Shown: positions 25,260 to 64,000 of the stretch, one piece after another
Numbering within the stretch: position 1 is the stretch's first letter
Layout: each line of letters begins with the position of its first letter
Source: Cinnamomum chago
Lineage: Eukaryota > Streptophyta > Magnoliopsida > Laurales > Lauraceae
Length of the DNA stretch: 64,000 bases
Direction of reading: 5' to 3'
Assembly (NCBI GenBank): GCA_038049695.1
Contig: CP142451.1
Coordinates: 123,849,501-123,913,500 of the forward strand
The notes under the pieces: model-generated
Told to the model about the DNA's origin: nothing
The model's input: the letters and a program-made list of their open reading frames with translations, nothing else
The model's database searches: none
Program-made: the position numbers and the translations under genes

Positions 25260-25261
25260 AT

Positions 25262-25273: not shown

Positions 25274-25314
25274 AGGTTGCACTATTTTATTATGTAGATC
25301 CAAATATTGCTAGA

Positions 25315-34775: not shown

Positions 34776-35038
34776 ATATCTGATACAGCCAATGCATATT
34801 GAGTTTTGCAAGAATCATATACGGTGGCCAAATATGTTTCTAAAAGCCATGGTCGTGATTCCCTATCATATTTGTATTTGAAAGCTGGAAACTATGAAGG
34901 AAAACACAATTTTAAAATCATTTTAATTAAATCCAGCGATAACTTCAGGATTATCCGCAATTGAATTGAAAGAAGGGAAAGAAAGCGGAAAATTTACAAG
35001 TGTAAGTATTTGATGATGTGAGACAAGGGCTCACAATC

Positions 35039-35300
35039 CCTATTTATAAACTTTCATACTGAATTACATTTGAAATGTATTTGAAATCCGCAATGGGATA
35101 AGATGTATACGTCATTTGTACTGTATCACTGTCGCATATAATATGCATTACTGTTGCTGCTGCATGAGTGAGATGACTTTATTGCTGACTGACGTTATTG
35201 AATTTGCTGCTGCATGCGTCTGACAGTCGGCGGAGAAATTATCGCTGTATTTGCGGCAGGGGGCAGGATATACTGTATGCTCAGCTGACGCGGCGGAGAC
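35039..35300 (-). promoter_or_regulatory. Pararetrovirus promoter, unit A
   Basis: On the minus strand TATAAATAGG lies at about 35039-35048, downstream of three TGACG-type (as-1-like, bZIP-binding) motifs, one of them TGACGTAT. This resembles other caulimovirid promoters, where such motifs drive the pregenomic RNA. Confidence 0.7.
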
Positions 35301-35757
35301 TGCAGGCACTTGAGACTGAATTGTTGACTTTAAATTACTTAATACTTTATTTGAAATAGTAGTCTATGGAATACTTTAATAAGAATAGTAATCCATAGCT
35401 CACAAATGTGGACTTTTGGAATTTTTTATACTTTTTTCAAATGAAAGTATTCGAAAGAACTTTATATGAGTGAGGCACATGAAAATGACATGTGTTGTTT
35501 ATAAAAGCATGATGGTGACAAGAATTTAAAGCTTGACTTCATGGAGGCTACGCATGGATGAATGAGATAATGAAGCTTCATTATTTGCAGGACACATGGC
35601 AGCATGGGGAGAGCTGTGCTGACTTTGGGGACTGCATTGAAAATTGCATTCGGACATCTGTATAGCTGAATTAATTCTGCATGGAGGTGGATGAAGGCTG
35701 TATTCGATGGCGAGATCTGCATTGAAATTTGCATGATATTGCTGCATGTGCTGGATT

Positions 35758-36903
35758 TTAATCATTTATGAGGTAGTAATCTGGTGGTTGTGGACTGGGG
35801 GTCCATACTCCATAATCATTTTCTCTTTGGAAGAGCTTGATAAGCTGTCTCTTTGTTCTTTCAGTAATATGAAGAGACGATGCATTTTGAAATGTTTCTA
35901 GAATTTCATCAAGAACTGTATGGCCAGCTCGAAAGGGATCATAATAAACAAATGTATCTTCTGCAAGATCTTCATCAATGCAGACGACGCGACGACCATC
36001 GCTCCAGATTCCCTTAAAAGTACGAGCAAATTCGAAATGTCTTTTGAGATTGATGAATCTTTGATTTTGATCAGCTTGAATATTGTAGAATTGTAGACGC
36101 TCCAGGCTGTAACTGAGATCTGCAGCATCTGAGGATTCAAATTGTTCTGCTTGATTCCAATTGCGATCAGGAAGATGTTCATAATCATTGATTGGAAGGC
36201 TGTATTTTTGACAGAATAAATCGCCGTCTTCATAATTCATAAGGATCCATAATTGATATGGTTGATAAAACCGGAATTCATCTCTTTCTCCAAGAGTGGA
36301 AGAGATTGTCATGAGAAGATTGCGCTTGGTGATGCCAAGGCAACTGAGAGCATATTTGACAATTGCAGGCAACTGTCGATGAATTGCTAAATTGTCTCTG
36401 TCGAGAATGAATCGATGAACTAGACCTTGTTCAATATAAGAAATATCAAATTCATCAGCGGGCAGGAACATCTTTGGAAAACCAGTGGCCCAGCTGAGAT
36501 AGGATGCTTGATTTATTAGTCGCTCCATGATCTGACAAGAGAGAGTTTCCTCTCTAATTCTTGCAGATAAATCGTCCGGAAGAAGAGTATTAACCCTTTC
36601 CAGGATTTGGTTTCTGTATTCAATTGGAGGGAGGGGTGACGATGCACATTGCTGTTCAAGCATTTGAATTTTTGATTCTAAATATTTGATATGATTTGAC
36701 AAATCAGAGAGGTGCTTTCGCATTAGAAAATTACGTTGGCCAGTAAGGCATGCACTCCAAATGTTATCAATAAGGGTTTGAGAAGCAGCAGAGGGTGCTG
36801 GATAGAAGGATGGAAAAGGTATTTGAAAGGGTAGTTCTTCATGAACAGGAACAGAGGCTTTATCTGAATCTATTGGTTGTTTGCCCTTATCTTTGGAAGA
36901 CAT
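35758..36903 (-). CDS. ORF2 protein of unknown function, unit A (381 residues)
   Basis: An open frame lies directly downstream of ORF1. The N-terminal 50 residues are polar then proline-rich (KGKQPIDSDKASVPVHEELP). Residues about 68-85 look like a short coiled coil (LSNHIKYLESKIQMLEQQ). The remainder is a compact Trp/Tyr/Asp-rich region with no motif I recognise (for example FYQPYQLWILMNYEDGDLF and GIWSDGRRVVCIDEDLAED). Florendoviruses are known to have a second ORF of unknown function after ORF1; homology is not shown here. It is preserved with near identity in four complete copies, which differ by a Tyr/Cys change that groups units A and C against E and G. Confidence 0.88.
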   Translation of the reverse strand: MSSKDKGKQPIDSDKASVPVHEELPFQIPFPSFYPAPSAASQTLIDNIWSACLTGQRNFLMRKHLSDLSNHIKYLESKIQMLEQQCASSPLPPIEYRNQILERVNTLLPDDLSARIREETLSCQIMERLINQASYLSWATGFPKMFLPADEFDISYIEQGLVHRFILDRDNLAIHRQLPAIVKYALSCLGITKRNLLMTISSTLGERDEFRFYQPYQLWILMNYEDGDLFCQKYSLPINDYEHLPDRNWNQAEQFESSDAADLSYSLERLQFYNIQADQNQRFINLKRHFEFARTFKGIWSDGRRVVCIDEDLAEDTFVYYDPFRAGHTVLDEILETFQNASSLHITERTKRQLIKLFQRENDYGVWTPSPQPPDYYLIND

Positions 36904-36913
36904 GATTGGTTTC

Positions 36914-36941
36914 CTATGGGGAGAGGAAATGAAATTAGTAA
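36914..36941 (-). promoter_or_regulatory. Candidate 3' splice site before ORF2, unit A
   Basis: On the minus strand TTACTAAT, a perfect branch-point-like word, is followed by a pyrimidine tract and CCCCATAG, ending 10 bases before the ORF2 ATG. Splicing to reach downstream ORFs is known in Caulimoviridae. It is the same in units C, E and G. Confidence 0.6.
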
Positions 36942-36999
36942 TAAAAATTCTTTATTGATGCAATAAAACTGTATTTTGGAAATATGAAGATGTATGCAA

Positions 37000-39900
37000 T
37001 TAAATATTAATTCCATTTATTCTACCAAGCCTTGGGCTTTCTATGAATTCAAATTTGATAGGCTTATCATCAATTGATGTATGAATTCCATCGGTATTTA
37101 CAGAAAATGGCTGAATTTTTAATAAGAAGGGTGTTCCTAAGATGACATCATTTGTTAATGTTTTTGTTACAGCAAAGGAAGTTTGAATGCATTTTCCATT
37201 TTTACATATATGAGCATTTGGAATCTTATAATTGACTATTATATTCTTTCCATTTGCTGTGCCAATGGTGTAATTTTTTATTTTCTCAAAATACTTTGTT
37301 GGAATTAATCCTTCACGGATGCAATTTACATCTGCTCCACTGTCAATTAAACAGTCAACAGATAAATTAAATTCTTTGATTTTTAGAGTGACAGTTGTAT
37401 ACCATTTATGGTAATGATATTTGGTAATGGAATTTACGAATTCTTGAATTTCTTCATCAAATTCTTTTTCGAGATTAGAATCTTCTTGATTATTTGAGCT
37501 GAATTCTTTACCTAATTCAAGGATTTCAATTCTTGTTTTTAATTTAGCAATTTCCTGGGTTGCTTCTTCTTTTAATTTTGCAATTTCATGTTTTGTTTCA
37601 TTAACTTCATTATGGAGATCTTGAAGGGTTAAAGGTTTTGAAGAGCTTGGTTTTTGGGAAAGAATATCTTTCATTGAAAGTGATTGAAAATCTTTATGTT
37701 TCTTAGAGGTTTTGTCAGTAGATTTATCTTCAAGCATTTTTCTATAGTATTTTCTCTTTTCTTCTTCAGAGGAAATATTTTCTATTAATTCCAGAAGTAA
37801 TTCATCTTGAGCATTTAAAACATTAATGGAGAAATAAGAAGATGAGGAGGAAGAATCATAAGAACTATCTTCGCTTTCGCAACATAGACATATATCTTTT
37901 TTATTTTCGGAATTATGAGAATGATAATCTAATTCATTGATTTTCTTTTTTGAATCTTTATTAAAACAGTTATTTGCAAAATGTCCTTCTTTGCCGCATT
38001 TATAGCATGTGTAATCAGATTTTTTGTGATTTTTATAGGATCGATATGATTTTTCATGATATCGTTTCTTTTTAGACCGATGTTTAGGTTGATAAATTCG
38101 ATTGGATGGATTTTGTAGGGGTTCATAGCCAAATTGATAGCAAAAATCCCCTAATTCTTGTTTACCAATTTTCTTTTGTTTATGTAAATCGGCTTTAATT
38201 TTCATATCACTGCAAATAGACATACCAACTCGAGAAATTTTTTGAATTAAATCACCATATGTATAGTTAGCATAATTTAATCTTCCATTATTTTGTTCTC
38301 GTAGAACATTTTTTACTTTTTCTGCAAAATGAGTTGGAAGGCCAGAAATAAATTTTTCTTTCCAGAAATCTTCATTAGAATTGAATAATTGAAAAACAAG
38401 GGATAAAAAGACATCTTTATACCATCTGAAATCAGATAAAGTTCGACATCGAAGATTGATTAATTGTTCTCTGTATTTTTCTATTTGATCACTAACATTT
38501 CCAGAGAAATTGATTAAAATATTATGAATTAGTGTTTCAACAGCATTAGAAATTGGCTGATTATTGGTATTAATAATGGGTTTACCTTCTTCAGTTAGTT
38601 TGACTGAATTTAGGATACTAGTTTTTTGGATTGAGGTTAGATAATATTCCCACCAGCCATGAAGTTGGCCAGTAAATCCAATTATTATTGATTTAATGAT
38701 TTCAGCTTGTGTATTGCCATAGATCATGCCTGCATTTGTATATAGTATCATATTGCGCAGAATATTAAGAATTCCATATTCAGTAAGTCCATCAATATTC
38801 CATTCGACTAATGAACTACCATCATATTTACAATTTGCTATATCAGGAATTTCTTCAAATTGGAGATTCATTGGAGTGGGTCTACTGTAATAATTTTTTG
38901 TTTTTGATGTATGAGTTTTAGGATTGAAAATTCTATTAATTTCAGGGATACATTGATCGTCAGGGTCATCTGTTGAAGTGTCAGTATTAGTGTCTGAAGA
39001 CATTTGAATTGATGTTCCTTCAATGACTGCATTAATTGAGGAGCCTTCATTTATTGATTTACCTTTGTCTAAAGGATTGATTCTTAAAGAAATGTCATTT
39101 TGAAAGTCAGCAGGGAGTTTTAATGGCCTTTTGTCTAAAGTCAATTTTGTAATAAATTCTGAACATAATGAAGGGACATCTCTGGATATTTTATACGGAG
39201 CTGAAGAAGTTGATTCGTGTTGAGATATAGTATTTTCAATTCTTTGAGTTTGTGAACCAATAGTCTGTAAATAGAGATTTGTAAAGTTACTTTGTTCAAC
39301 TAGATGAGATATATGTTCAACAGTAAGGAGTTTAGAAGTTGGCAGAGCATTTTTAAATGGAGTGGCAGTGATTTCTTTATGCCTTATAGTTTCTAAAGGA
39401 GGGTGAACCGATTCAACTTTACCTTTCTCGGTTTCCCATGTTTGTGTGGATTTATTAATTGTCATCATTATAGTTCCTTTTTTATTTATTTTGGACGAAA
39501 GCCAATCAAAGAAAGGGATATTTCGCCGTTCTTGATTCATTTGTTCATACCATAATTCTTTTACTTGAGATCTCTCAAATTTAGAGAATTTGGTAAAAAA
39601 CCATTTTGTCTTTGGATGTTTTAATAAATCTTGTTGAAGGAATTGTTTATCAATTTTGAAATCATGTATTACTTCATTAGATTCATGAATTAAGGAAATT
39701 GTATTAATTGATGCATTAAAATCGGATTCAGTTAATTTTACTGATTGTATATCTTCATCTTTTGCGTCTGAATAAACAGGGAAAGCTATGCCTGTAGGAT
39801 GTATTGGGGGTGATGTGGGAATAGATGTTTGATGAAAATTAGAAGAGGCTGATTTATAAGATCCAGCGTCTGAAGGGATTGATCTTTTTGTGGATGAAAA

Positions 39901-40788
39901 GTGTGATCTTGGTGTATTGGCAAAATTTATTGTTACTTTTCCAGATGGATGTTCTGTAATAGATTCAACATCTTCATTAATTAAAGGTGTGATTTGTTGA
40001 GCTTCATCAAGCTCCCATTTTCCAGAAAGATTTACATCTTCCCATGTGATGAGTTTGGGGGTGGTGACTTTATTTCGAAAATTTGTAAGGAATAAGGTGG
40101 TTACTCCTTTGATTTGAGATGAATATGCTATTTCAGGGACAATTGTATTCATTGCTTTATAATAAATTCTGTATACTATTGCAACATTTTGTGATTGGGG
40201 TTTCATATTGAATCCTTTTGTATGTATTCCGAGAGTGATGGCTTCATGAGCACCGGGATCACTGAGTGATACGGTGTAATTGGGGAAACAATTAAAAAAG
40301 GCAGGGCCGTCATGAAGACTGGCTTCTACCATCCCTATTAGGGAATCTCTGAATGAATTATGTCTTCTATCTCGAACATATGCGAGACAGGATGTATTCA
40401 AACCAAGTCTGGTTAATGGCTTTATTGCAACTTGAACAAGTGCTATATGCATGTATTTGTATTTTGATTTATGGATTTCAATTTTTTCTGCAGGAATGAC
40501 CTGTAGATTTTCTTCATTTTGCTGTATTGAGAGGGTTTCTTCAACCGTCTTTATTACATAATTTGATTTTTGTATGAAAGATCCTTCTTTATAAATTTCT
40601 TTTAAAGAGACTTTAGGTATTGTCCAATCTTGGATTGATTTTTCTAAATCATCAAAACTTATTTCTTCAAGATTTTTAATTGAAATTTTATTTATTATTG
40701 GCATGATGGATGATGATGCAGAAGAAGAAGTAGAAGCTGTGTTAGAAGATGAATTTCTTCCGAATGATCTAAAAATTCCAGACATCAT
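37000..40788 (-). CDS. ORF1 polyprotein, unit A: movement protein, capsid, zinc knuckle, aspartic protease
   Basis: The frame has 1262 codons starting at ATGATG. Residues about 60-250 form a 30K-superfamily movement protein (LGLNTSCLAYVRDRR, then FFNCFPNYTVSLSDPG and VAIVYRIYYKAMNT), which in this family moves virus through plasmodesmata. Residues about 640-910 are caulimovirid capsid (FTGQLHGWWEYYL, WKEKFISGLPTHFAEKV, YTYGDLIQKISRVGMSIC). A CCHC knuckle (CYKCGKEGHFANNC) lies at about 927-940, followed by a Ser/Asp/Glu-rich stretch, then a coiled coil at about 1055-1095. A retropepsin active site (CLIDSGADVNCIREGLIP) lies near 1148. The frame ends about 110 codons later. In typical caulimovirids, reverse transcriptase and RNase H would follow the protease; here there are none. 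Confidence 0.92.
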   Translation of the reverse strand: MMSGIFRSFGRNSSSNTASTSSSASSSIMPIINKISIKNLEEISFDDLEKSIQDWTIPKVSLKEIYKEGSFIQKSNYVIKTVEETLSIQQNEENLQVIPAEKIEIHKSKYKYMHIALVQVAIKPLTRLGLNTSCLAYVRDRRHNSFRDSLIGMVEASLHDGPAFFNCFPNYTVSLSDPGAHEAITLGIHTKGFNMKPQSQNVAIVYRIYYKAMNTIVPEIAYSSQIKGVTTLFLTNFRNKVTTPKLITWEDVNLSGKWELDEAQQITPLINEDVESITEHPSGKVTINFANTPRSHFSSTKRSIPSDAGSYKSASSNFHQTSIPTSPPIHPTGIAFPVYSDAKDEDIQSVKLTESDFNASINTISLIHESNEVIHDFKIDKQFLQQDLLKHPKTKWFFTKFSKFERSQVKELWYEQMNQERRNIPFFDWLSSKINKKGTIMMTINKSTQTWETEKGKVESVHPPLETIRHKEITATPFKNALPTSKLLTVEHISHLVEQSNFTNLYLQTIGSQTQRIENTISQHESTSSAPYKISRDVPSLCSEFITKLTLDKRPLKLPADFQNDISLRINPLDKGKSINEGSSINAVIEGTSIQMSSDTNTDTSTDDPDDQCIPEINRIFNPKTHTSKTKNYYSRPTPMNLQFEEIPDIANCKYDGSSLVEWNIDGLTEYGILNILRNMILYTNAGMIYGNTQAEIIKSIIIGFTGQLHGWWEYYLTSIQKTSILNSVKLTEEGKPIINTNNQPISNAVETLIHNILINFSGNVSDQIEKYREQLINLRCRTLSDFRWYKDVFLSLVFQLFNSNEDFWKEKFISGLPTHFAEKVKNVLREQNNGRLNYANYTYGDLIQKISRVGMSICSDMKIKADLHKQKKIGKQELGDFCYQFGYEPLQNPSNRIYQPKHRSKKKRYHEKSYRSYKNHKKSDYTCYKCGKEGHFANNCFNKDSKKKINELDYHSHNSENKKDICLCCESEDSSYDSSSSSSYFSINVLNAQDELLLELIENISSEEEKRKYYRKMLEDKSTDKTSKKHKDFQSLSMKDILSQKPSSSKPLTLQDLHNEVNETKHEIAKLKEEATQEIAKLKTRIEILELGKEFSSNNQEDSNLEKEFDEEIQEFVNSITKYHYHKWYTTVTLKIKEFNLSVDCLIDSGADVNCIREGLIPTKYFEKIKNYTIGTANGKNIIVNYKIPNAHICKNGKCIQTSFAVTKTLTNDVILGTPFLLKIQPFSVNTDGIHTSIDDKPIKFEFIESPRLGRINGINI

Positions 40789-41161
40789 TAATTAATTATA
40801 ATCACTAATCAGAATGATTGGTGGCCTGTCAACGATTTACGCCACAAAGCCCTAAACGCTCTCCTGGCTAACGGGCAACAAAGGCGACGCGACAAGGGGG
40901 CCTCGGACCCAAATCACTCCTTTTAGCAACAACAACCAATTAACTCTATCTAGTCAAGTTAGATCAAAATTCAGAAATGCAGCTACCTAACATAGATTCG
41001 ATTCTACTATGCAAACAACAAACAAATAACCAAAGAAGGAAAGAGACATGATGCATGCAAAATTTTGCAAATAAATTGAAATAATTGAAAGCTTAAAGAG
41101 CTATCAAAATGGATAAAGGAATTGATACTTCATTGATAAAATATTTCTTACAATAAGAGAA

Positions 41162-41183
41162 GACTGGGATGGCTCTGATACCA
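41162..41183 (-). other. Met-tRNA primer-binding site, unit A
   Basis: The minus strand reads TGGTATCAGAGCCATCCCAG and two more bases. It is the initiator-Met tRNA complement used by caulimovirids to prime minus-strand DNA. Confidence 0.88.
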
Positions 41184-41275
41184 ATTTGACGATGAACCCC
41201 TACAAAATCCATCCAATCGAATTTATCAACCTAAACATCGGTCTAAAAAGAAACGATATCATGAAAAATCAATTG
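41184..41275 (+). mobile_element. Short inverted pararetrovirus scrap at the A/B joint
   Basis: About 80 bp of plus-strand ORF1 capsid-end sequence (from GAACCCCTACAAAATCC through AAAAAGAAACGATATCATG) lies between minus-strand units. It is rearrangement filler made of virus sequence. Confidence 0.8.
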
Positions 41276-44200
41276 ATATATAGTATTTTCTCTTTTCTTC
41301 TTCAGAGGAAATATTTTCTATTAATTCCAGAAGTAATTCATCTTGAGCATTTAAAACATTAATGGAGAAATAAGAAGATGAGGAGGAAGAATCATAAGAA
41401 CTATCTTCGCTTTCGCAACATAGACATATATCTTTTTTATTTTCGGAATTATGAGAATGATAATCTAATTCATTGATTTTCTTTTTTGAATCTTTATTAA
41501 AACAGTTATTTGCAAAATGTCCTTCTTTGCCGCATTTATAGCATGTGTAATCAGATTTATTAGTTTTATGGTTTGGGGAAGAGCTGGATTTTCTCCTCTT
41601 TGAATTGTGTTTTTCATGTTTTCCTTTTGTATATTTTTTGTGATTTTTATAGGATCGATATGATTTTTCATGATATCGTTTCTTTTTAGACCGATGTTTA
41701 GGTTGATAAATTCGATTGGATGGATTTTGTAGGGGTTCATAGCCAAATTGATAGCAAAAATCCCCTAATTCTTGTTTACCAATTTTCTTTTGTTTATGTA
41801 AATCGGCTTTAATTTTCATATCACTGCAAATAGACATACCAACTCGAGAAATTTTTTGAATTAAATCACCATATGTATAGTTAGCATAATTTAATCTTCC
41901 ATTATTTTGTTCTCGTAGAACATTTTTTACTTTTTCTGCAAAATGAGTTGGAAGGCCAGAAATAAATTTTTCTTTCCAGAAATCTTCATTAGAATTGAAT
42001 AATTGAAAAACAAGGGATAAAAAGACATCTTTATACCATCTGAAATCAGATAAAGTTCGACATCGAAGATTGATTAATTGTTCTCTGTATTTTTCTATTT
42101 GATCACTAACATTTCCAGAGAAATTGATTAAAATATTATGAATTAGTGTTTCAACAGCATTAGAAATTGGCTGATTATTGGTATTAATAATGGGTTTACC
42201 TTCTTCAGTTAGTTTGACTGAATTTAGGATACTAGTTTTTTGGATTGAGGTTAGATAATATTCCCACCAGCCATGAAGTTGGCCAGTAAATCCAATTATT
42301 ATTGATTTAATGATTTCAGCTTGTGTATTGCCATAGATCATGCCTGCATTTGTATATAGTATCATATTGCGCAGAATATTAAGAATTCCATATTCAGTAA
42401 GTCCATCAATATTCCATTCGACTAATGAACTACCATCATATTTACAATTTGCTATATCAGGAATTTCTTCAAATTGGAGATTCATTGGAGTGGGTCTACT
42501 GTAATAATTTTTTGTTTTTGATGTATGAGTTTTAGGATTGAAAATTCTATTAATTTCAGGGATACATTGATCGTCAGGGTCATCTGTTGAAGTGTCAGTA
42601 TTAGTGTCTGAAGACATTTGAATTGATGTTCCTTCAATGACTGCATTAATTGAGGAGCCTTCATTTATTGATTTACCTTTGTCTAAAGGATTGATTCTTA
42701 AAGAAATGTCATTTTGAAAGTCAGCAGGGAGTTTTAATGGCCTTTTGTCTAAAGTCAATTTTGTAATAAATTCTGAACATAATGAAGGGACATCTCTGGA
42801 TATTTTATACGGAGCTGAAGAAGTTGATTCGTGTTGAGATATAGTATTTTCAATTCTTTGAGTTTGTGAACCAATAGTCTGTAAATAGAGATTTGTAAAG
42901 TTACTTTGTTCAACTAGATGAGATATATGTTCAACAGTAAGGAGTTTAGAAGTTGGCAGAGCATTTTTAAATGGAGTGGCAGTGATTTCTTTATGCCTTA
43001 TAGTTTCTAAAGGAGGGTGAACCGATTCAACTTTACCTTTCTCGGTTTCCCATGTTTGTGTGGATTTATTAATAGTCATCATTATAGTTCCTTTTTTATT
43101 TATTTTTGACGAAAGCCAATCAAAGAAAGGGATATTTCGCCGTTCTTGATTCATTTGTTCATACCATAATTCTTTTACTTGAGATCTCTCAAATTTAGAG
43201 AATTTGGTAAAAAACCATTTTGTCTTTGGATGTTTTAATAAATCTTGTTGAAGGAATTGTTTATCAATTTTGAAATCATGTATTACTTTATTAGATTCAT
43301 GAATTAAGGAAATTGTATTAATTGATGCATTAAAATCGGATTCAGTTAATTTTACTGATTGTATATCTTCATCTTTTGCGTCTGAATAAACAGGGAAAGC
43401 TATGCCTGTAGGATGTATTGGGGGTGATGTGGGAATAGATGTTTGATGAAAATTAGAAGAGGCTGATTTATAAGATCCAGCGTCTGAAGGGATTGATCTT
43501 TTTGTGGATGAAAAGTGTGATCTTGGTGTATTGGCAAAATTTATTGTTACTTTTCCAGATGGATGTTCTGTAATAGATTCAACATCTTCATTGATTAAAG
43601 GTGTGATTTGTTGAGCTTCATCAAGCTCCCATTTTCCAGAAAGATTTACATCTTCCCATGTGATGAGTTTGGGGGTGGTGACTTTATTTCGAAAATTTGT
43701 AAGGAATAAGGTGGTTACTCCTTTGATTTGAGATGAATATGCTATTTCAGGGACAATTGTATTCATTGCTTTATAATAAATTCTGTATACTATTGCAACA
43801 TTTTGTGATTGAGGTTTCATATTGAATCCTTTTGTATGTATTCCTAGAGTGATGGCTTCATGAGCACCGGGATCACTGAGTGATACGGTGTAATTGGGGA
43901 AACAATTAAAAAAGGCAGGGCCGTCATGAAGACTGGCTTCTACCATCCCTATTAGGGAATCTCTGAATGAATTATGTCTTCTATCTCGAACATACGCGAG
44001 ACAGGATGTATTCAAACCAAGTCTGGTTAATGGCTTTATTGCAACTTGAACAAGTGCTATATGCATGTATTTGTATTTTGATTTATGGATTTCAATTTTT
44101 TCTGCAGGAATGACCTGTAGATTTTCTTCATTTTGCTGTATTGAGAGGGTTTCTTCAACCGTCTTTATTACATAATTTGATTTTTGTATGAAAGATCCTT

Positions 44201-46782: not shown

Positions 46783-46900
46783 GATTGGTTTCCTATGGGG
46801 AGAGGAAATGAAATTAGTAATAAAAATTCTTTATTGATGCAATAAAACTGTATTTTGGAAATATGAAGATGTATGCAATTAAATATTAATTCCATTTATT

Positions 46901-50698: not shown

Positions 50699-50720
50699 TG
50701 GTATCAGAGCCATCCCAGTC
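50699..50720 (+). other. Met-tRNA primer-binding site, unit E
   Basis: TGGTATCAGAGCCATCCCAG and two more bases, complementary in type to initiator-Met tRNA. It is placed at the start of the leader. Confidence 0.9.
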
Positions 50721-54000: not shown

Positions 54001-54960
54001 AAAGATTCAAAAAAGAAAATCAATGAATTAGATTATCATTCTCATAATTCCGAAAATAAAAAAGATATATGTCTATGTTGCGAAAGCGAAGATAGTTCTT
54101 ATGATTCTTCCTCCTCATCTTCTTATTTCTCCATTAATGTTTTAAATGCTCAAGATGAATTACTTCTGGAATTAATAGAAAATATTTCCTCTGAAGAAGA
54201 AAAGAGAAAATACTATAGAAAAATGCTTGAAGATAAATCTACTGACAAAACCTCTAAGAAACATAAAGATTTTCAATCACTTTCAATGAAAGATATTCTT
54301 TCCCAAAAACCAAGCTCTTCAAAACCTTTAACCCTTCAAGATCTCCATAATGAAGTTAATGAAACAAAACATGAAATTGCAAAATTAAAAGAAGAAGCAA
54401 CCCAGGAAATTGCTAAATTAAAAACAAGAATTGAAATCCTTGAATTAGGTAAAGAATTCAGCTCAAATAATCAAGAAGATTCTAATCTCGAAAAAGAATT
54501 TGATGAAGAAATTCAAGAATTCGTAAATTCCATTACCAAATATCATTACCATAAATGGTATACAACTGTCACTCTAAAAATCAAAGAATTTAATTTATCT
54601 GTTGACTGTTTAATTGACAGTGGAGCAGATGTAAATTGCATCCGTGAAGGATTAATTCCAACAAAGTATTTTGAGAAAATAAAAAATTACACCATTGGCA
54701 CAGCAAATGGAAAGAATATAATAGTCAATTATAAGATTCCAAATGCTCATATCTGTAAAAATGGAAAATGCATTCAAACTTCCTTTGCTGTAACAAAAAC
54801 ATTAACAAATGATGTCATCTTAGGAACACCCTTCTTATTAAAAATTCAGCCATTTTCTGTAAATACCGATGGAATTCATACATCAATTGATGATAAGCCT
54901 ATCAAATTTGAATTCATAGAAAGCCCAAGGCTTGGTAGAATAAATGGAATTAATATTTAA
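51094..54960 (+). pseudogene. ORF1 polyprotein region, unit E (about one break)
   Basis: Same architecture as unit A: movement protein, capsid, CCHC knuckle (about 53950-53993), coiled coil and aspartic protease (DSGAD at about 54617-54631). It then ends without reverse transcriptase. It has about one break and is otherwise near identical to the open copies. Confidence 0.9.
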
Positions 54961-55018
54961 TTGCATACATCTTCATATTTCCAAAATACAGTTTTATTGC
55001 ATCAATAAAGAATTTTTA

Positions 55019-55046
55019 TTACTAATTTCATTTCCTCTCCCCATAG
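55019..55046 (+). promoter_or_regulatory. Candidate 3' splice site before ORF2, unit E
   Basis: TTACTAAT (branch-point-like), then TTCATTTCCTCTCCCCATAG ending at 55046, with the ORF2 ATG at 55057. An AATAAA word lies just upstream (about 55004). The arrangement suits a spliced mRNA for ORF2, a strategy known in this family. Confidence 0.62.
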
Positions 55047-55056
55047 GAAACCAATC

Positions 55057-56202
55057 ATGTCTTCCAAAGATAAGGGCAAACAACCAATAGATTCAGATAA
55101 AGCCTCTGTTCCTGTTCATGAAGAACTACCCTTTCAAATACCTTTTCCATCCTTCTATCCAGCACCCTCTGCTGCTTCTCAAACCCTTATTGATAACATT
55201 TGGAGTGCATGCCTTACTGGCCAACGTAATTTTCTAATGCGAAAGCACCTCTCTGATTTGTCAAATCATATCAAATATTTAGAATCAAAAATTCAAATGC
55301 TTGAACAGCAATGTGCATCGTCACCCCTCCCTCCAATTGAATACAGAAACCAAATCCTGGAAAGGGTTAATACTCTTCTTCCGGACGATTTATCTGCAAG
55401 AATTAGAGAGGAAACTCTCTCTTGTCAGATCATGGAGCGACTAATAAATCAAGCATCCTATCTCAGCTGGGCCACTGGTTTTCCAAAGATGTTCCTGCCC
55501 GCTGATGAATTTGATATTTCTTATATTGAACAAGGTCTAGTTCATCGATTCATTCTCGACAGAGACAATTTAGCAATTCATCGACAGTTGCCTGCAATTG
55601 TCAAATATGCTCTCAGTTGCCTTGGCATCACCAAGCGCAATCTTCTCATGACAATCTCTTCCACTCTTGGAGAAAGAGATGAATTCCGGTTTTATCAACC
55701 ATATCAATTATGGATCCTTATGAATTATGAAGACGGCGATTTATTCTGTCAAAAATACAGCCTTCCAATCAATGATTATGAACATCTTCCTGATCGCAAT
55801 TGGAATCAAGCAGAACAATTTGAATCCTCAGATGCTGCAGATCTCAGTTACAGCCTGGAGCGTCTACAATTCTGCAATATTCAAGCTGATCAAAATCAAA
55901 GATTCATCAATCTCAAAAGACATTTCGAATTTGCTCGTACTTTTAAGGGAATCTGGAGCGATGGTCGTCGCGTCGTCTGCATTGATGAAGATCTTGCAGA
56001 AGATACATTTGTTTATTATGATCCCTTTCGAGCTGGCCATACAGTTCTTGATGAAATTCTAGAAACATTTCAAAATGCATCGTCTCTTCATATTACTGAA
56101 AGAACAAAGAGACAGCTTATCAAGCTCTTCCAAAGAGAAAATGATTATGGAGTATGGACCCCCAGTCCACAACCACCAGATTACTACCTCATAAATGATT
56201 AA
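55057..56202 (+). CDS. ORF2 protein of unknown function, unit E (381 residues)
   Basis: A full-length open copy. It differs from the unit A and C proteins at one visible position (LQFCNIQ instead of LQFYNIQ) and shares that variant with unit G. This links the two plus-strand copies as sisters for this part of the genome. Confidence 0.88.
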   Translation: MSSKDKGKQPIDSDKASVPVHEELPFQIPFPSFYPAPSAASQTLIDNIWSACLTGQRNFLMRKHLSDLSNHIKYLESKIQMLEQQCASSPLPPIEYRNQILERVNTLLPDDLSARIREETLSCQIMERLINQASYLSWATGFPKMFLPADEFDISYIEQGLVHRFILDRDNLAIHRQLPAIVKYALSCLGITKRNLLMTISSTLGERDEFRFYQPYQLWILMNYEDGDLFCQKYSLPINDYEHLPDRNWNQAEQFESSDAADLSYSLERLQFCNIQADQNQRFINLKRHFEFARTFKGIWSDGRRVVCIDEDLAEDTFVYYDPFRAGHTVLDEILETFQNASSLHITERTKRQLIKLFQRENDYGVWTPSPQPPDYYLIND

Positions 56203-56669
56203 AATCCAGCACATGCAGCAATATCATGTAAATTTCAATGCAGATCTCGCCATCGAATACAGCCTTCATCCACCTCCATGCAGAATTAATTCAGCTATAC
56301 AGATGTCCGAATGCAATTTTCAATGCAGTCCCCAAAGTCAGCACAGCTCTCCCCATGCTGCCATGTGTCCTGCAAATAATGAAGCTTCATTATCTCATTC
56401 ATCCATGCGTAGCCTCCATGAAGTCAAGCTTTAAATTCTTGTCACCATCATGCTTTTATAAACAACACATGTCATTTTCATGTGCCTCACTCATATAAAG
56501 TTCTTTCGAATACTTTCATTTGAAAAAAGTATAAAAAATTCCAAAAGTCCACATTTGTGAGCTATGGATTACTATTCTTATTAAAGTATTCCATAGACTA
56601 CTATTTCAAATAAAGTATTAAGTAATTTAAAGTCAACAATTCAGTCTCAAGTGCCTGCAGTCTCCGCCG

Positions 56670-56920
56670 CGTCAGCTGAGCATACAGTATATCCTGCCCC
56701 CTGCAGCAAATACAGCGATAATTTCTCCGCCGACTGTCAGACGCATGCAGCAGCAAATTCAATAACGTCAGTCAGCAATAAAGTCATCTCACTCATGCAG
56801 CAGCAACAGTAATGCATATTATATGCGACAGTGATACAGTACAAATGACGTATACATCTTATCCCATTGCGGATTTCAAATACATTTCAAATGTAATTCA
56901 GTATGAAAGTTTATAAATAG
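56670..56920 (+). promoter_or_regulatory. Pararetrovirus promoter, unit E
   Basis: TATAAATAG lies at 56912-56920. Upstream, TGACG-type motifs occur at 56670-56674 (as CGTCA), 56766-56770 (as CGTCA) and 56846-56851 (TGACGT). They are as-1-like sites of the kind found in caulimovirid promoters. The transcript would start about 25-35 bp past the TATA box and run into the primer-binding region of the next unit. Confidence 0.7.
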
Positions 56921-57041
56921 GGATTGTGAGCCCTTGTCTCACATCATCAAATACTTACACTTGTAAATTTTCCGCTTTCTTTCCCTTCTTTCAATTCAGT
57001 CTTACTTAGAGTTTACTGGTTCGGTCCCGGTCTCGTCCAAT

Positions 57042-58846
57042 TGGTATCAGAGCATTTTTAAATGGAGTGGCAGTGATTTCTTTATGCCTTATAGTTTCTA
57101 AAGGAGGGTGAACCGATTCAACTTTACCTTTCTCGGTTTCCCATGTTTGTGTGGATTTATTAATTGTCATCATTATAGTTCCTTTTTTATTTATTTTGGA
57201 CGAAAGCCAATCAAAGAAAGGGATATTTCGCCGTTCTTGATTCATTTGTTCATACCATAATTCTTTTACTTGAGATCTCTCAAATTTAGAGAATTTGGTA
57301 AAAAACCATTTTGTCTTTGGATGTTTTAATAAATCTTGTTGAAGGAATTGTTTATCAATTTTGAAATCATGTATTACTTTATTAGATTCATGAATTAAGG
57401 AAATTGTATTAATTGATGCATTAAAATCGGATTCAGTTAATTTTACTGATTGTATATCTTCATCTTTTGCGTCTGAATAAACAGGGAAAGCTATGCCTGT
57501 AGGATGTATTGGGGGTGATGTGGGAATAGATGTTTGATGAAAATTAGAAGAGGCTGATTTATAAGATCCAGCGTCTGAAGGGATTGATCTTTTTGTGGAT
57601 GAAAAGTGTGATCTTGGTGTATTGGCAAAATTTATTGTTACTTTTCCAGATGGATGTTCTGTAATAGATTCAACATCTTCATTGATTAAAGGTGTGATTT
57701 GTTGAGCTTCATCAAGCTCCCATTTTCCAGAAAGATTTACATCTTCCCATGTGATGAGTTTGGGGGTGGTGACTTTATTTCGAAAATTTGTAAGGAATAA
57801 GGTGGTTACTCCTTTGATTTGAGATGAATATGCTATTTCAGGGACAATTGTATTCATTGCTTTATAATAAATTCTGTATACTATTGCAACATTTTGTGAT
57901 TGAGGTTTCATATTGAATCCTTTTGTATGTATTCCTAGAGTGATGGCTTCATGAGCACCGGGATCACTGAGTGATACGGTGTAATTGGGGAAACAATTAA
58001 AAAAGGCAGGGCCGTCATGAAGACTGGCTTCTACCATCCCTATTAGGGAATCTCTGAATGAATTATGTCTTCTATCTCGAACATACGCGAGACAGGATGT
58101 ATTCAAACCAAGTCTGGTTAATGGCTTTATTGCAACTTGAACAAGTGCTATATGCATGTATTTGTATTTTGATTTATGGATTTCAATTTTTTCTGCAGGA
58201 ATGACCTGTAGATTTTCTTCATTTTGCTGTATTGAGAGGGTTTCTTCAACCGTCTTTATTACATAATTTGATTTTTGTATGAAAGATCCTTCTTTATAAA
58301 TTTCTTTTAAAGAGACTTTAGGTATTGTCCAATCTTGGATTGATTTTTCTAAATCATCAAAACTTATTTCTTCAAGATTTTTAATTGAAATTTTATTTAT
58401 TATTGGCATGATGGATGATGATGCAGAAGAAGAATTAGAAGCTGTGTTAGAAGATGAATTTCTTCCGAATGAACTAAAGATTCCAGACATCATTAATAAT
58501 TATAATCACTAATCAGAATGATTGGTGGCCTGTCAACGATTTACGCCACAAAGCCCTAAACGCTCTCCTGGCTAACGGGCAACAAAGGCGACGCGACAAG
58601 GGGGCCTCGGACCCAAATCACTCCTTTTAGCAACAACAACCAAGTAACTCTATCTAGTCAAGTTAGATCAAAATTCAGAAATGCAGCTACCTAACATAGA
58701 TTCGATTCTACTATGCAAACAACAAACAAATAACCAAAGAAGGAAAGAGACATGATGCATGCAAAATTTTGCAAATAAATTGAAATAATTGAAAGCTTAA
58801 AGAGCTATCAAAATGGATAAAAGAATTGATACTTCATTGATAAAAT
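57042..58846 (-). mobile_element. Pararetrovirus part-unit F: leader and movement-protein part of ORF1
   Basis: The minus-strand copy begins immediately after the primer-binding word that ends unit E (57042-57053). It covers ORF1 from its ATG at 58493 through the movement-protein region, plus the leader up to about 58846. Capsid, protease, ORF2 and promoter are absent. It is inverted relative to both neighbours. Confidence 0.87.
57054..58493 (-). pseudogene. ORF1, unit F (movement-protein part only)
   Basis: About 480 codons match the N-terminal part of ORF1, including the complete 30K movement-protein core. It carries the ESNKVIHDF variant shared with units B and E, whereas A, C and G have ESNEVIHDF. 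It is an incomplete copy. Confidence 0.87.
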
Positions 58847-58888
58847 CTATGTTAGGTAGCTGCATTTAATTTTGATATGTCCCCGTAA

Positions 58889-61800
58889 CTCAGTGATCCC
58901 GGTGCTCATGAAGCCATCACTCTAGGAATACATACAAAAGGATTCAATATGAAACCTCAATCACAAAATGTTGCAATAGTATACAGAATTTATTATAAAG
59001 CAATGAATACAATTGTCCCTGAAATAGCATATTCATCTCAAATCAAAGGAGTAACCACCTTATTCCTTACAAATTTTCGAAATAAAGTCACCACCCCCAA
59101 ACTCATCACATGGGAAGATGTAAATCTTTCTGGAAAATGGGAGCTTGATGAAGCTCAACAAATCACACCTTTAATCAATGAAGATGTTGAATCTATTACA
59201 GAACATCCATCTGGAAAAGTAACAATAAATTTTGCCAATACACCAAGATCACACTTTTCATCCACAAAAAGATCAATCCCTTCAGACGCTGGATCTTATA
59301 AATCAGCCTCTTCTAATTTTCATCAAACATCTATTCCCACATCACCCCCAATACATCCTACAGGCATAGCTTTCCCTGTTTATTCAGACGCAAAAGATGA
59401 AGATATACAATCAGTAAAATTAATTGAATCCGATTTTAATGCATCAATTAATACAATTTCCTTAATTCATGAATCTAATGAAGTAATACATGATTTCAAA
59501 ATTGATAAACAATTCCTTCAACAAGATTTATTAAAACATCCAAAGACAAAATGGTTTTTTACCAAATTCTCTAAATTTGAGAGATCTCAAGTAAAAGAAT
59601 TATGGTATGAACAAATGAATCAAGAACGGCGAAATATCCCTTTCTTTGATTGGCTTTCGTCCAAAATAAATAAAAAAGGAACTATAATGATGACAATTAA
59701 TAAATCCACACAAACATGGGAAACCGAGAAAGGTAAAGTTGAATCGGTTCACCCTCCTTTAGAAACTATAAGGCATAAAGAAATCATTGCCACTCCATTT
59801 AAAAATGCTCTGCCAACTTCTAAACTCCTTACTGTTGAACATATATCTCATCTAGTTGAACAAAGTAACTTTACAAATCTCTATTTACAGACTATTGGTT
59901 CACAAACTCAAAGAATTGAAAATACTATATCTCAACACGAATCAACTTCTTCAGCTCCGTATAAAATATCCAGAGATGTCCCTTCATTATGTTCAGAATT
60001 TATTACAAAATTGACTTTAGACAAAAGGCCATTAAAACTCCCTGCTGACTTTCAAAATGACATTTCTTTAAGAATCAATCCTTTAGACAAAGGTAAATCA
60101 ATAAATGAAGGCTCCTCAATTAATGCAGTCATTGAAGGAACATCAATTCAAATGTCTTCAGACACTAATACTGACACTTCAACAGATGACTCTGACGATC
60201 AATGTATCCCTGAAATTAATAGAATTTTCAATCCTAAAACTCATACATCAAAAACAAAAAATTATTACAGTAGACCCACTCCAATGAATCTCCAATTTGA
60301 AGAAATTCCTGATATAGCAAATTGTAAATATGATGGTAGTTCATTAGTCGAATGGAATATTGATGGACTTACTGAATATGGAATTCTTAATATTCTGCGC
60401 AATATGATACTATATACAAATGCAGGCATGATCTATGGCAATACACAAGCTGAAATCATTAAATCAATAATAATTGGATTTACTGGCCAACTTCATGGCT
60501 GGTGGGAATATTATCTAACCTCAATCCAAAAAACTAGTATCCTAAATTCAGTCAAACTAACTGAAGAAGGTAAACCCATTATTAATACCAATAATCAGCC
60601 AATTTCTAATGCTGTTGAAACACTAATTCATAATATTTTAATCAATTTCTCTGGAAATGTTAGTGATCAAATAGAAAAATACAGAGAACAATTAATCAAT
60701 CTTCGATGTCGAACTTTATCTGATTTCAGATGGTATAAAGATGTCTTTTTATCCCTTGTTTTTCAATTATTCAATTCTAATGAAGATTTCTGGAAAGAAA
60801 AATTTATTTCTGGCCTTCCAACTCATTTTGCAGAAAAAGTAAAAAATGTTCTACGAGAACAAAATAATGGAAGATTAAATTATGCTAACTATACATATGG
60901 TGATTTAATTCAAAAAATTTCTCGAGTTGGTATGTCTATTTGCAGTGATATGAAAATTAAAGCCGATTTACATAAACAAAAGAAAATTGGTAAACAAGAA
61001 TTAGGGGATTTTTGCTATCAATTTGGCTATGAACCCCTACAAAATCCATCCAATCGAATTTATCAACCTAAACATCGGTCTAAAAAGAAACGATATCATG
61101 AAAAATCATATCGATCCTATAAAAATCACAAAAAATATACAAAAGGAAAACATGAAAAACACAATTCAAAGAGGAGAAAATCCAGCTCTTCCCCAAACCA
61201 TAAAACTAATAAATCTGATTACACATGCTATAAATGCGGCAAAGAAGGACATTTTGCAAATAACTGTTTTAATAAAGATTCAAAAAAGAAAATCAATGAA
61301 TTAGATTATCATTCTCATAATTCCGAAAATAAAAAAGATATATGTCTATGTTGCGAAAGCGAAGATAGTTCTTATGATTCTTCCTCCTCATCTTCTTATT
61401 TCTCCATTAATGTTTTAAATGCTCAAGATGAATTACTTCTGGAATTAATAGAAAATATTTCCTCTGAAGAAGAAAAGAGAAAATACTATAGAAAAATGCT
61501 TGAAGATAAATCTACTGACAAAACCTCTAAGAAACATAAAGATTTTCAATCACTTTCAATGAAAGATATTCTTTCCCAAAAACCAAGCTCTTCAAAACCT
61601 TTAACCCTTCAAGATCTCCATAATGAAGTTAATGAAACAAAACATGAAATTGCAAAATTAAAAGAAGAAGCAACCCAGGAAATTGCTAAATTAAAAACAA
61701 GAATTGAAATCCTTGAATTAGGTAAAGAATTCAGCTCAAATAATCAAGAAGATTCTAATCTCGAAAAAGAATTTGATGAAGAAATTCAAGAATTCGTAAA

Positions 61801-62233
61801 TTCCATTACCAAATATCATTACCATAAATGGTATACAACTGTCACTCTAAAAATCAAAGAATTTAATTTATCTGTTGACTGTTTAATTGACAGTGGAGCA
61901 GATGTAAATTGCATCCGTGAAGGATTAATTCCAACAAAGTATTTTGAGAAAATAAAAAATTACACCATTGGCACAGCAAATGGAAAGAATATAATAGTCA
62001 ATTATAAGATTCCAAATGCTCATATCTGTAAAAATGGAAAATGCATTCAAACTTCCTTTGATGTAACAAAAACATTAACAAATGATGTCATCTTAGGAAC
62101 ACCCTTCTTATTAAAAATTCAGCCATTTTCTGTAAATACCGATGGAATTCATACATCAATTGATGATAAGCCTATCAAATTTGAATTCATAGAAAGCCCA
62201 AGGCTTGGTAGAATAAATGGAATTAATATTTAA
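58889..62233 (+). pseudogene. ORF1, unit G (partial, open to its end)
   Basis: It starts inside the movement-protein core and is then open through capsid, CCHC knuckle, coiled coil and protease to the same end as units A and E, near identical in sequence. As in every other unit, no reverse transcriptase follows the protease. It is an incomplete copy because the N-terminus is missing. Confidence 0.9.
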
Positions 62234-62291
62234 TTGCATACATCTTCATATTTCCAAAATACAGTTTTATTGCATCAATAAAGAATTTTTA

Positions 62292-62319
62292 TTACTAATT
62301 TCATTTCCTCTCCCCATAG
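62292..62319 (+). promoter_or_regulatory. Candidate 3' splice site before ORF2, unit G
   Basis: The same TTACTAAT plus pyrimidine tract plus CCCCATAG arrangement as in unit E, ending 10 bases before the ORF2 ATG at 62330. Confidence 0.6.
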
Positions 62320-62329
62320 GAAACCAATC

Positions 62330-63475
62330 ATGTCTTCCAAAGATAAGGGCAAACAACCAATAGATTCAGATAAAGCCTCTGTTCCTGTTCATGAAGAACT
62401 ACCCTTTCAAATACCTTTTCCATCCTTCTATCCAGCACCCTCTGCTGCTTCTCAAACCCTTATTGATAACATTTGGAGTGCATGCCTTACTGGCCAACGT
62501 AATTTTCTAATGCGAAAGCACCTCTCTGATTTGTCAAATCATATCAAATATTTAGAATCAAAAATTCAAATGCTTGAACAGCAATGTGCATCGTCACCCC
62601 TCCCTCCAATTGAATACAGAAACCAAATCCTGGAAAGGGTTAATACTCTTCTTCCGGACGATTTATCTGCAAGAATTAGAGAGGAAACTCTCTCTTGTCA
62701 GATCATGGAGCGACTAATAAATCAAGCATCCTATCTCAGCTGGGCCACTGGTTTTCCAAAGATGTTCCTGCCCGCTGATGAATTTGATATTTCTTATATT
62801 GAACAAGGTCTAGTTCATCGATTCATTCTCGACAGAGACAATTTAGCAATTCATCGACAGTTGCCTGCAATTGTCAAATATGCTCTCAGTTGCCTTGGCA
62901 TCACCAAGCGCAATCTTCTCATGACAATCTCTTCCACTCTTGGAGAAAGAGATGAATTCCGATTTTATCAACCATATCAATTATGGATCCTTATGAATTA
63001 TGAAGACGGCGATTTATTCTGTCAAAAATACAGCCTTCCAATCAATGATTATGAACATCTTCCTGATCGCAATTGGAATCAAGCAGAACAATTTGAATCC
63101 TCAGATGCTGCAGATCTCAGTTACAGCCTGGAGCGTCTACAATTCTGCAATATTCAAGCTGATCAAAATCAAAGATTCATCAATCTCAAAAGACATTTCG
63201 AATTTGCTCGTACTTTTAAGGGAATCTGGAGCGATGGTCGTCGCGTCGTCTGCATTGATGAAGATCTTGCAGAAGATACATTTGTTTATTATGATCCCTT
63301 TCGAGCTGGCCATACAGTTCTTGATGAAATTCTAGAAACATTTCAAAATGCATCGTCTCTTCATATTACTGAAAGAACAAAGAGACAGCTTATCAAGCTC
63401 TTCCAAAGAGAAAATGATTATGGAGTATGGACCCCCAGTCCACAACCACCAGATTACTACCTCATAAATGATTAA
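62330..63475 (+). CDS. ORF2 protein of unknown function, unit G (381 residues)
   Basis: A full-length open copy, identical by eye in protein to unit E's ORF2 (LQFCNIQ variant). Downstream sequence matches the ORF2-promoter interval of the other units up to the window edge. Confidence 0.88.
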   Translation: MSSKDKGKQPIDSDKASVPVHEELPFQIPFPSFYPAPSAASQTLIDNIWSACLTGQRNFLMRKHLSDLSNHIKYLESKIQMLEQQCASSPLPPIEYRNQILERVNTLLPDDLSARIREETLSCQIMERLINQASYLSWATGFPKMFLPADEFDISYIEQGLVHRFILDRDNLAIHRQLPAIVKYALSCLGITKRNLLMTISSTLGERDEFRFYQPYQLWILMNYEDGDLFCQKYSLPINDYEHLPDRNWNQAEQFESSDAADLSYSLERLQFCNIQADQNQRFINLKRHFEFARTFKGIWSDGRRVVCIDEDLAEDTFVYYDPFRAGHTVLDEILETFQNASSLHITERTKRQLIKLFQRENDYGVWTPSPQPPDYYLIND

Positions 63476-64000
63476 AATCCAGCACATGCAGCAATATCAT
63501 GCAAATTTCAATGCAGATCTCGCCATCGAATACAGCCTTCATCCACCTCCATGCAGAATTAATTCAGCTATACAGATGTCCGAATGCAATTTTCAATGCA
63601 GTCCCCAAAGTCAGCACAGCTCTCCCCATGCTGCCATGTGTCCTGCAAATAATGAAGCTTCATTATCTCATTCATCCATGCGTAGCCTCCATGAAGTCAA
63701 GCTTTAAATTCTTGTCACCATCATGCTTTTATAAACAACACATGTCATTTTCATGTGCCTCACTCATATAAAGTTCTTTCGAATACTTTCATTTGAAAAA
63801 AGTATAAAAAATTCCAAAAGTCCACATTTGTGAGCTATGGATTACTATTCTTATTAAAGTATTCCATAGACTACTATTTCAAATAAAGTATTAAGTAATT
63901 TAAAGTCAACAATTCAGTCTCAAGTGCCTGCAGTCTCCGCCGCGTCAGCTGAGCATACAGTATATCCTGCCCCCTGCAGCAAATACAGCGATAATTTCTC

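What the first reader, a model, noticed from the sequence alone, without database searches (positions are those of the whole stretch)
34962..64000. Pararetrovirus genome without any reverse transcriptase: candidate component of a multipartite pararetrovirus
Seen: unit E spans one primer-binding site to the next (6.34 kb), and unit A is equally complete. In both, ORF1 ends about 110 codons after the protease active site and is followed at once by ORF2 and the promoter. I found no YxDD motif or RNase H in any unit. Known: autonomous Caulimoviridae encode reverse transcriptase after the protease, and some florendoviruses have been reported to have bipartite genomes. Inferred: this is a capsid/movement/protease component that was replicated by a polymerase supplied in trans. 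Several copies with this same layout argue against a one-off deletion.
Basis: partly seen in the sequence, partly recalled or inferred. Interest (0 to 1): 0.92.

Follow-up and report, generated by a model that had tools for sequence, protein, structure and literature searches.

The report
Polymerase-less half of two-part virus
This stretch of a plant chromosome is packed with copies of a virus genome that carries movement, coat and protease genes but no reverse transcriptase, and a matching genome that does carry the reverse transcriptase lies in the same arrays, so the two likely replicated together as halves of one virus.

Summary
Units in 34962-64000 carry MP, coat, CCHC and protease domains; ORF1 stops just after the protease and a second ORF follows, with no RT or RNase H. 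The missing polymerase exists. In the same 1.06-Gb genome a second unit shares the leader, MP and intergenic region (97-99%; one intergenic variant 87%) but carries RT-RNase H and no coat, CCHC or protease. One such copy's RT part begins 1.1 kb past the window's right edge. Genome-wide, the RT-less junction occurs at 106 places; 78 of 85 protease sites have it at one fixed distance. 50 of 51 scored RT matches begin past the protease; the exception is a different, decayed relative. Copies show a synonymous excess in all six coding blocks, and the shared 1.8-kb block barely sorts by component. This fits published bipartite florendoviruses and complementary non-autonomous pararetroviruses (PMC4241990, PMC5491270). 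It is a well-preserved new member with a clean split: protease only with coat, polymerase only with its partner. The genus is inferred.

The parts
34962..41192 (-). Component B unit c1: leader, ORF1 (MP-CP-PR), ORF2, intergenic region
   Evidence: self-BLAST map, ORFs, Pfam
37000..40788 (-). ORF1 of c1, 1262 aa, ends just after the protease
40147..40602 (-). MP domain PF01107 in ORF1
   Evidence: E 3e-19
38542..38826 (-). DUF7746 (coat region) in ORF1; the Caulimovirus coat domain PF22909 was hit in the c7 copy
   Evidence: E 1.2e-23
37963..38010 (-). CCHC zinc knuckle in ORF1
   Evidence: E 4.7e-6
37111..37392 (-). Retropepsin (RVP) domain in ORF1; DSGAD active site
35758..36903 (-). ORF2 of component B, 381 aa, no Pfam match
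34962..35739 (-). Shared 3' block (intergenic region), also found on the RT-bearing component
39371..41192 (-). Shared 5' block (leader + MP, 1822 bp), also found on the RT-bearing component
41172..41184 (-). Primer-binding site TTGGTATCAGAGC; others in the array at 44786, 49160 (-) and 50329, 50513, 50698, 57041 (+)
   Evidence: 7 of the window's 9 matches; none of 100 shuffles reaches 9
41271..44806 (-). Unit c2, component B, lacks protease and ORF2
44807..49180 (-). Unit c3, A/B recombinant: shared 5' block, fragment of component A, last codons of component B ORF1, ORF2
46951..47339 (-). 389-bp fragment of the RT-bearing component A (linker before RT) inside c3
   Evidence: 97.9% identity
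49215..50170 (-). Fragment c4: intergenic region and 3' end of ORF2
50171..50690 (.). Shuffled short fragments with extra primer-binding sites
50691..57047 (+). Unit c5, component B, complete PBS to PBS (6343 bp); ORF1 interrupted
57048..58846 (-). Fragment c6: leader and MP, inverted relative to c5
58888..64000 (+). Unit c7, component B, 5' truncated, cut by the window edge; the array continues and the A-specific part of an RT-bearing unit starts 1.1 kb further on

Best explanation
The array at 34962-64000 consists of copies of one component (B: movement protein, coat, protease, ORF2) of an endogenous pararetrovirus, likely a florendovirus, whose other component (A: movement protein, reverse transcriptase, RNase H, an unrelated second ORF) sits in the same arrays, and the two would have replicated together by supplying proteins in trans. 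Shown: both unit types have the same primer-binding site, leader, MP and intergenic region and differ in between; each lacks what the other carries; both keep long open frames in several copies; copies of both show more synonymous differences than chance gives. Inferred: component A reverse-transcribed both pregenomic RNAs, starting at the shared primer-binding site. Component B's coat protein packaged both. Component B's protease had to cut component A's polyprotein, which has no protease of its own. Template switching or gene conversion kept the shared ends alike. Chromosomal copies arose by capture of viral DNA, probably during break repair, often with both components together, followed by local rearrangement and amplification.
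For: Shared ends with two alternative middles: each of the 35 full shared 5' blocks examined (29 after removal of duplicates: 16 A, 13 B) is followed by either A or B sequence. RT (E 1e-38 to 1e-39), RNase H and MP on component A, with no coat, CCHC or RVP match. Full A-specific segment at 98.6% from 1.1 kb past the window edge. B junction at 106 places, control 0; RT 40-mer at 207 places, control 0; protease 42-mer at 85 places, control 0. 78 of 85 protease sites show the B junction at 325-331 nt; 0 of 85 have one of the 42 listed non-satellite RT hits within 3 kb downstream; 9 of 11 clusters of those RT hits coincide with B clusters. 50 of 51 scored RT matches start 85 or more residues past the protease active site of the query. 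pN/pS 0.14-0.21 in MP, CP, PR, ORF2_B and RT; synonymous excess above the maximum of 1000 permutations in six of six coding blocks, including those found only on B and only on A (ORF2_A narrowly, 17 against 16). In the shared block mean A-B distance (1.44%) is about that within A (1.40%); the label needs 7 changes against a shuffled mean of 9.9. RT core 67.9% identical to a Vitis vinifera RT and in one clade with it.
Against: Only 40 of 286 leader candidates were scored, only 51 of 18,327 candidates, and only 100 of 207 RT places are listed, 58 of them in one satellite-like array, so the test for RT after protease is incomplete on that side. 7 of 85 protease sites lack the B junction. The component label does cluster weakly in the shared-block tree (23 of 500 shuffles as low). 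Nonsynonymous alleles outnumber synonymous ones in PR among copies at 97% or more (32 against 27), though far less than chance predicts. A relative with protease joined to RT exists in this genome (C3:21971570), so an autonomous helper is not excluded. Genus placement lacks labelled reference sequences: four viral-contig scans gave none.
Confidence: 0.87

Rival explanations
1. Both RT-less and protease-less units are defective parasites of an autonomous monopartite pararetrovirus that supplied everything; they are two kinds of helper-dependent genome, not two halves of one.
For: A relative with PR directly followed by RT-RH and an A-type second ORF is present at C3:21971001-21975600. PMC5491270 (passages) describes one such possible commensal pair in rice.
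Against: That relative is far from both components (75% nt to A in RT, 51% aa to B in PR), has 2 in-frame stops, and is 1 of 51 scored RT matches. Among the window and the loci mapped no junction joins this PR to this RT; the single B-to-A join (L027) lies before the protease. Coat/protease and RT genes alike show selection, which redundant parasites would not need.
Confidence: 0.09
2. The units are deletion derivatives made inside the chromosome and multiplied by tandem duplication; the RT loss happened once in genomic DNA.
For: Strong local amplification does occur: a 4131-bp RT-bearing monomer is repeated in a satellite-like array on C4, and arrays contain many near-identical copies.
Against: B sites fall in 43 clusters more than 100 kb apart. 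A B-type ORF1 of 1288 aa recurs in arrays on C2, C4, C6 and C12. Copies show a synonymous excess beyond 1000 permutations, which needs selection during replication.
Confidence: 0.03
3. The pair is a two-component pararetrovirus but of petuvirus or another clade, not a florendovirus.
For: No labelled petuvirus or florendovirus sequence could be put in the tree; the argument rests on one Vitis RT and on published statements about which viruses Vitis holds. A survey table (PMC9794742, passage) also names Vitis for a tungrovirus cluster.
Against: RT core identity to the Vitis RT is 67.9%, above the 55% and 62% group thresholds quoted in PMC5766536 and PMC13308828. A dedicated screen of the Vitis genome found only florendoviruses and the Vitis endovirus, the latter placed in clade A. 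The named hits among the best 120 of 1042 span many angiosperm families, as reported for florendoviruses.
Confidence: 0.1

Closest known systems
Bipartite florendoviruses, components A and B (Vitis vinifera B and D virus, Oryza sativa B virus, Sorghum bicolor virus; PMC4241990, passages read)
   Same: RT-less component with MP, CP and AP; RT-bearing component without CP; near-identical intergenic region and MP; both components in compound insertions; component sizes 5.5-6.9 kb (here 5.7-5.8 and 6.34 kb).
   Different: Here B has no RNase H remnant and ends ORF1 right after the protease; its ORF2 is a separate ORF with no detectable similarity to the second ORF of A, whereas in Vitis B carries a fused ORF2-like extension and keeps part of RNase H.
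ePVCVL and ePVCVL2, complementary non-autonomous pararetroviruses of grasses (PMC5491270, passages read)
   Same: Two defective genomes that complement each other, with IGR and MP kept alike by recombination.
   Different: There both genomes encode a protease and the RT-less one carries an SFKTE domain; here only the coat component has a protease and neither second ORF contains the SFKTE string.
Component-B-like protein P0003 (ENA contig of 4610 bp; its N-terminus is that of P0007, annotated Vitis vinifera)
   Same: MP-CP-CCHC-PR polyprotein of similar length (1253 aa), without an RT match.
   Different: By eye it runs on after the protease into an RNase H-like remnant, which the window's ORF1 does not.
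P0001, ORF2 homologue from a EukProt transcriptome
   Same: 82% identical to ORF2 over 70% of it; its first 24 residues match the window's ORF1 end and stop region, so the same B layout appears transcribed in another data set.
   Different: Organism not named to me; only 306 aa.

Membership tests
Caulimoviridae (endogenous pararetrovirus) | 30K MP, coat with CCHC, retropepsin, RT and RNase H in the genome | tested here: met
   met by A and B together; not met by B alone
Caulimoviridae (endogenous pararetrovirus) | tRNA-Met primer-binding site at the genome start | tested here: met
   TTGGTATCAGAGC, PBS to PBS 6343 bp; the tRNA assignment is recalled
Bipartite florendovirus | RT-less component with MP, CP, AP | tested here: met
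Bipartite florendovirus | RT-bearing partner without CP, sharing IGR and MP | tested here: met
Bipartite florendovirus | both components in compound insertions | tested here: met
Bipartite florendovirus | RT falls in the florendovirus clade | tested here: inconclusive
   67.9% to a Vitis RT and same clade; no labelled reference sequences
Bipartite florendovirus | ORF2-like domain homologous on both components | tested here: not met
   no similarity between the two second ORFs; the feature is reported for Vitis and as more divergent in grasses
Bipartite virus (general) | both components needed for infection, packaged and transmitted | not testable with these tools
   fossil sequences only

The most novel reading that the evidence does not exclude
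This is an obligate two-component pararetrovirus with a complete division of labour: the capsid component alone makes the protease and the polymerase component alone makes RT-RNase H, so component A's polyprotein could only have been processed by component B's protease. It was active recently enough to leave copies of both halves with long open reading frames in one plant genome.
Probability: 0.5. Interest if true: 0.72.

Novelty: new member of a known kind. Interest (0 to 1): 0.52.

Why it matters
Divided genomes are common in plant RNA viruses, but the divided reverse-transcribing viruses described in the passages I read are plant fossils known from reconstructed consensus genomes. Here individual chromosomal copies of both halves keep long open frames, lie in the same arrays, share homogenised ends, and show purifying selection on genes found only in one half. 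That makes the two-part reading testable in a living host.

Tried and rejected
Viral-contig scans (IMG/VR) with the MP piece, the protease piece, the RT piece and an RT alignment found no relatives, so no labelled caulimovirid could anchor the tree. A fold of ORF2 from three sequences was useless (mean pLDDT 35.7) and no fold search was run. Rfam and tRNA scans of the window were empty. A homology between the two second ORFs was tested and not found. An intrachromosomal deletion was rejected on selection and spread. Host species was not identified. A paper on sugar beet pararetroviruses (PMC8389469) is not held, so what is said of beet comes from passages of PMC10377300. Literature was searched; the eight papers opened were seen as passages only, and no claim of absence from print is made.

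Rows dropped: the 58 RT hits of the C4 tandem array were left out of the RT list, and the other 107 of 207 RT hits were not shown. In one search copies were de-duplicated by position (35 to 29); the window's recombinant c3 counts there as A. In some searches and 106 loci L056-L060 were left out because they lie in the window or in L075, and L073 was also left out; bases inserted in a copy relative to the reference segment were skipped, and one search counted copies with at least 200 nt of overlap. The junction counts are not de-duplicated. RT rows covering fewer than 200 of 221 core columns were dropped before the tree (122 to 106), and 38 chosen rows were used.
Full report
What is in the window. 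The right half of the window (34962-64000) is an array of pararetrovirus units in both orientations, 99.4-99.9% identical over overlaps of 350 nt or more. Two units are essentially complete: c1 at 34962-41192 (minus) and c5 at 50691-57047 (plus, 6343 bp from one primer-binding site to the next). ORF1, searched in pieces, gives MP, DUF7588, DUF7746/coat, CCHC and retropepsin, and no RT or RNase H. The DSGAD site lies about 113 codons before the ORF1 stop; ORF2 (381 aa, no Pfam match) follows 96 nt later. No YxDD-type motif occurs in six frames of the array. The other copies are rearranged: c2 lacks protease and ORF2, c3 is internally deleted, c7 lacks its 5' part, the ORF1 of c5 is interrupted, and 50171-50690 is a shuffle of short pieces.

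The missing polymerase is next door. A search of the whole genome with the 400-nt leader gave 286 candidates, of which 40 were scored, all near 100% identity. Mapping the 30 loci returned showed two recurrent breakpoints: units share positions 1-1822 (leader and MP) and 5454-6231 (intergenic region) but have one of two middles. The second middle, read from C4 (L039, L040), codes for RT (E 2e-38) and two RNase H-like domains with the MP upstream, and gives no coat, CCHC or protease match. The same was found on C5 (L041) and in the stretch that follows the window (L075). In L075 the whole A-specific segment (3105 bp, 98.6%) starts 1.1 kb past the window edge with RT at E 2.7e-39, behind a 5'-truncated shared block. 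The window itself holds 389 bp of this component inside c3 (46951-47339). I call the RT-less unit component B and the RT-bearing unit component A.

Layout of the two components. B: PBS to PBS 6343 bp, ORF1 of 1288 aa in L039, L042, L043 and L044 (1262 aa in c1, which lacks about 75 nt), ORF2 of 381 aa. A: 5739 bp between starts in L040 and 5798 bp in L041, ORF1 of 1120 aa (MP, RT, RNase H) and an overlapping ORF of 391 aa in L041. In A the stretch between MP and RT has no D[ST]G site and no retropepsin match. The two second ORFs show no similarity. In the relative L077 described below, an ORF like that of A follows RNase H (42% identity), so the A-type ORF is probably the ancestral second ORF and the B-type ORF the odd one.

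How general it is. A 37-mer across the B ORF1 stop and towards ORF2 occurs at 106 places (up to 3 mismatches; reversed control 0). Of the 30 loci returned, 23 by my count carry the protease region upstream. The other seven are c3, L060 and five loci on C1:4.33-4.40 Mb with one and the same join of A (position 1739, in RNase H) to B (position 2218); three of these five (L046, L047, L049) carry A's whole RT region. A 42-mer at the protease active site occurs at 85 places (control 0): 78 of 85 have the B junction at 325-331 nt and 0 of 85 have a listed RT hit within 3 kb downstream. A 40-mer at the RT active site occurs at 207 places (control 0). Of the 100 listed, 58 form one satellite-like array and 42 fall in 11 clusters, 9 of them shared with B. 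B and protease sites fall in 43 clusters more than 100 kb apart. A search with a protein that has protease joined to RT (P0013, DTGAD at residue 266) scored 51 of 18,327 candidates: 50 of 51 start at residue 351-387, and by my count 28 of 51 lie in open frames of 1107-1131 aa, some of them in the satellite region. The exception, C3:21971570, starts at 274, has 2 stops, and is 75% (nt) to A's RT and 51% (aa) to B's protease. It is a different, decayed relative with protease joined to RT. Among all junctions mapped one (L027) joins B to A in sense, before the protease.

Were the halves under selection? Pairwise pN/pS among copies was 0.155 (MP, 13 copies), 0.21 (CP, 7), 0.154 (PR, 21), 0.183 (ORF2_B, 16) and 0.139-0.141 (RT, 6 and 3). 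Synonymous alleles exceeded the maximum of 1000 base-matched permutations in MP, CP, PR, ORF2_B, RT-RNase H and ORF2_A, both for copies at 97% or more and for all copies; ORF2_A only narrowly (17 against 16) in the first set. In raw counts synonymous alleles were about half (for PR at 97% or more, 27 of 59). So many differences between copies probably arose while the proteins of both components were in use. Some copies carry stops (1 of 21 PR, 1 of 7 CP, 3 of 16 ORF2_B copies).

Did they live together? In 29 de-duplicated shared 5' blocks (16 A, 13 B) the mean distance between components (1.44%) is about that within A (1.40%; within B 1.10%). The component label needs 7 changes on the tree against 9.9 in shuffles (23 of 500 as low). 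Majority bases differ at 12 sites, near-fixed only in the last 30 or so bp before the breakpoint. This is what exchange of the shared ends would give. It resembles the homogenised IGR and MP reported for ePVCVL/ePVCVL2 and for florendovirus components (PMC5491270; PMC4241990; passages read). Gene conversion in the chromosome could contribute.

What it is. RT core identity to a Vitis vinifera protein is 67.9%, and both fall in one clade of 34 of 38 rows (midpoint root). Published group thresholds are 55% or 62% (passages). A dedicated screen of the Vitis genome found only florendoviruses and the Vitis endovirus, the latter placed in clade A (passages), although another survey table names Vitis for a tungrovirus cluster. 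Florendovirus membership is therefore likely but inferred. Bipartite florendoviruses are known from grape, rice, sorghum and, by review, beet (passages). The present pair is a new member. Its split differs: only B has a protease (both Oryza genomes have one; in grape, A sometimes lacks it), B has no RNase H remnant, and the second ORFs are unrelated. P0003, whose N-terminus equals a protein annotated as Vitis, is a B-like polyprotein with an RNase H-like tail (tail judged by eye). P0001, from a transcriptome, spans the same B junction (E 6.5e-10 in a single comparison).

Mechanism, marked. Shown: complementary coding, shared cis regions, selection on both, co-location. Inferred: trans replication by A's RT, trans packaging and trans processing by B, exchange at the shared ends, and capture of mixed viral DNA during break repair. 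Not shown: any particle, episome or transmission.

Noticed in passing
G000 C4:70875114-71172574 (L076 = C4:70883001-70887600): RT 40-mer hits, mostly 4131-4132 bp apart in one orientation (58 of the 100 listed): a satellite-like array whose monomer is shared 5' block 83-1822 plus component A 1-2373, without promoter or primer-binding site; in the one pair of successive periods checked, 460 of 460 bases agree. B junction hits lie on either side.
   Followed up: partly
G000 C1:4.33-4.40 Mb (L046, L047, L049, L050, L051): Five loci with one and the same join of component A (in RNase H) to the end of component B ORF1 and ORF2; pairs spaced about 5.8 kb; RT region whole in three.
   Followed up: partly
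G000 C6:13692874-13717874: Six B junction hits spaced by exactly 5000 bp; either a 5000-bp tandem duplication or an assembly artefact.
   Followed up: no
L077 (G000 C3:21971001-21975600): Decayed relative with protease joined to RT-RNase H and an A-type second ORF, and an MP fragment in the opposite orientation.
   Followed up: partly
window 24365-28346: LTR element with 895-bp repeats 94.2% identical, a TTGGTATCAGAGC primer site at 25261 and a copia-type gag ORF; no other retroelement domain in the ORFs scanned: a likely non-autonomous copia element.
   Followed up: partly
window 1-4000: Retroelement remnants on the minus strand: integrase core (133-624), YIDD motif at 2417, a weak aspartyl protease match below its cut-off (3131-3607).
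   Followed up: no
window c1 near 38019-38022 versus c2, c5, c7 and other loci: Unit c1 lacks about 75 nt that the other B copies have, giving ORF1 of 1262 rather than 1288 aa.
   Followed up: partly
L041 and several C3 loci: A variant intergenic region at about 87% identity with roughly 31 extra bp goes with some component A copies.
   Followed up: no
window 50171-50690: Patchwork of short viral pieces with extra primer-binding-site copies, as break-repair filler might leave.
   Followed up: no
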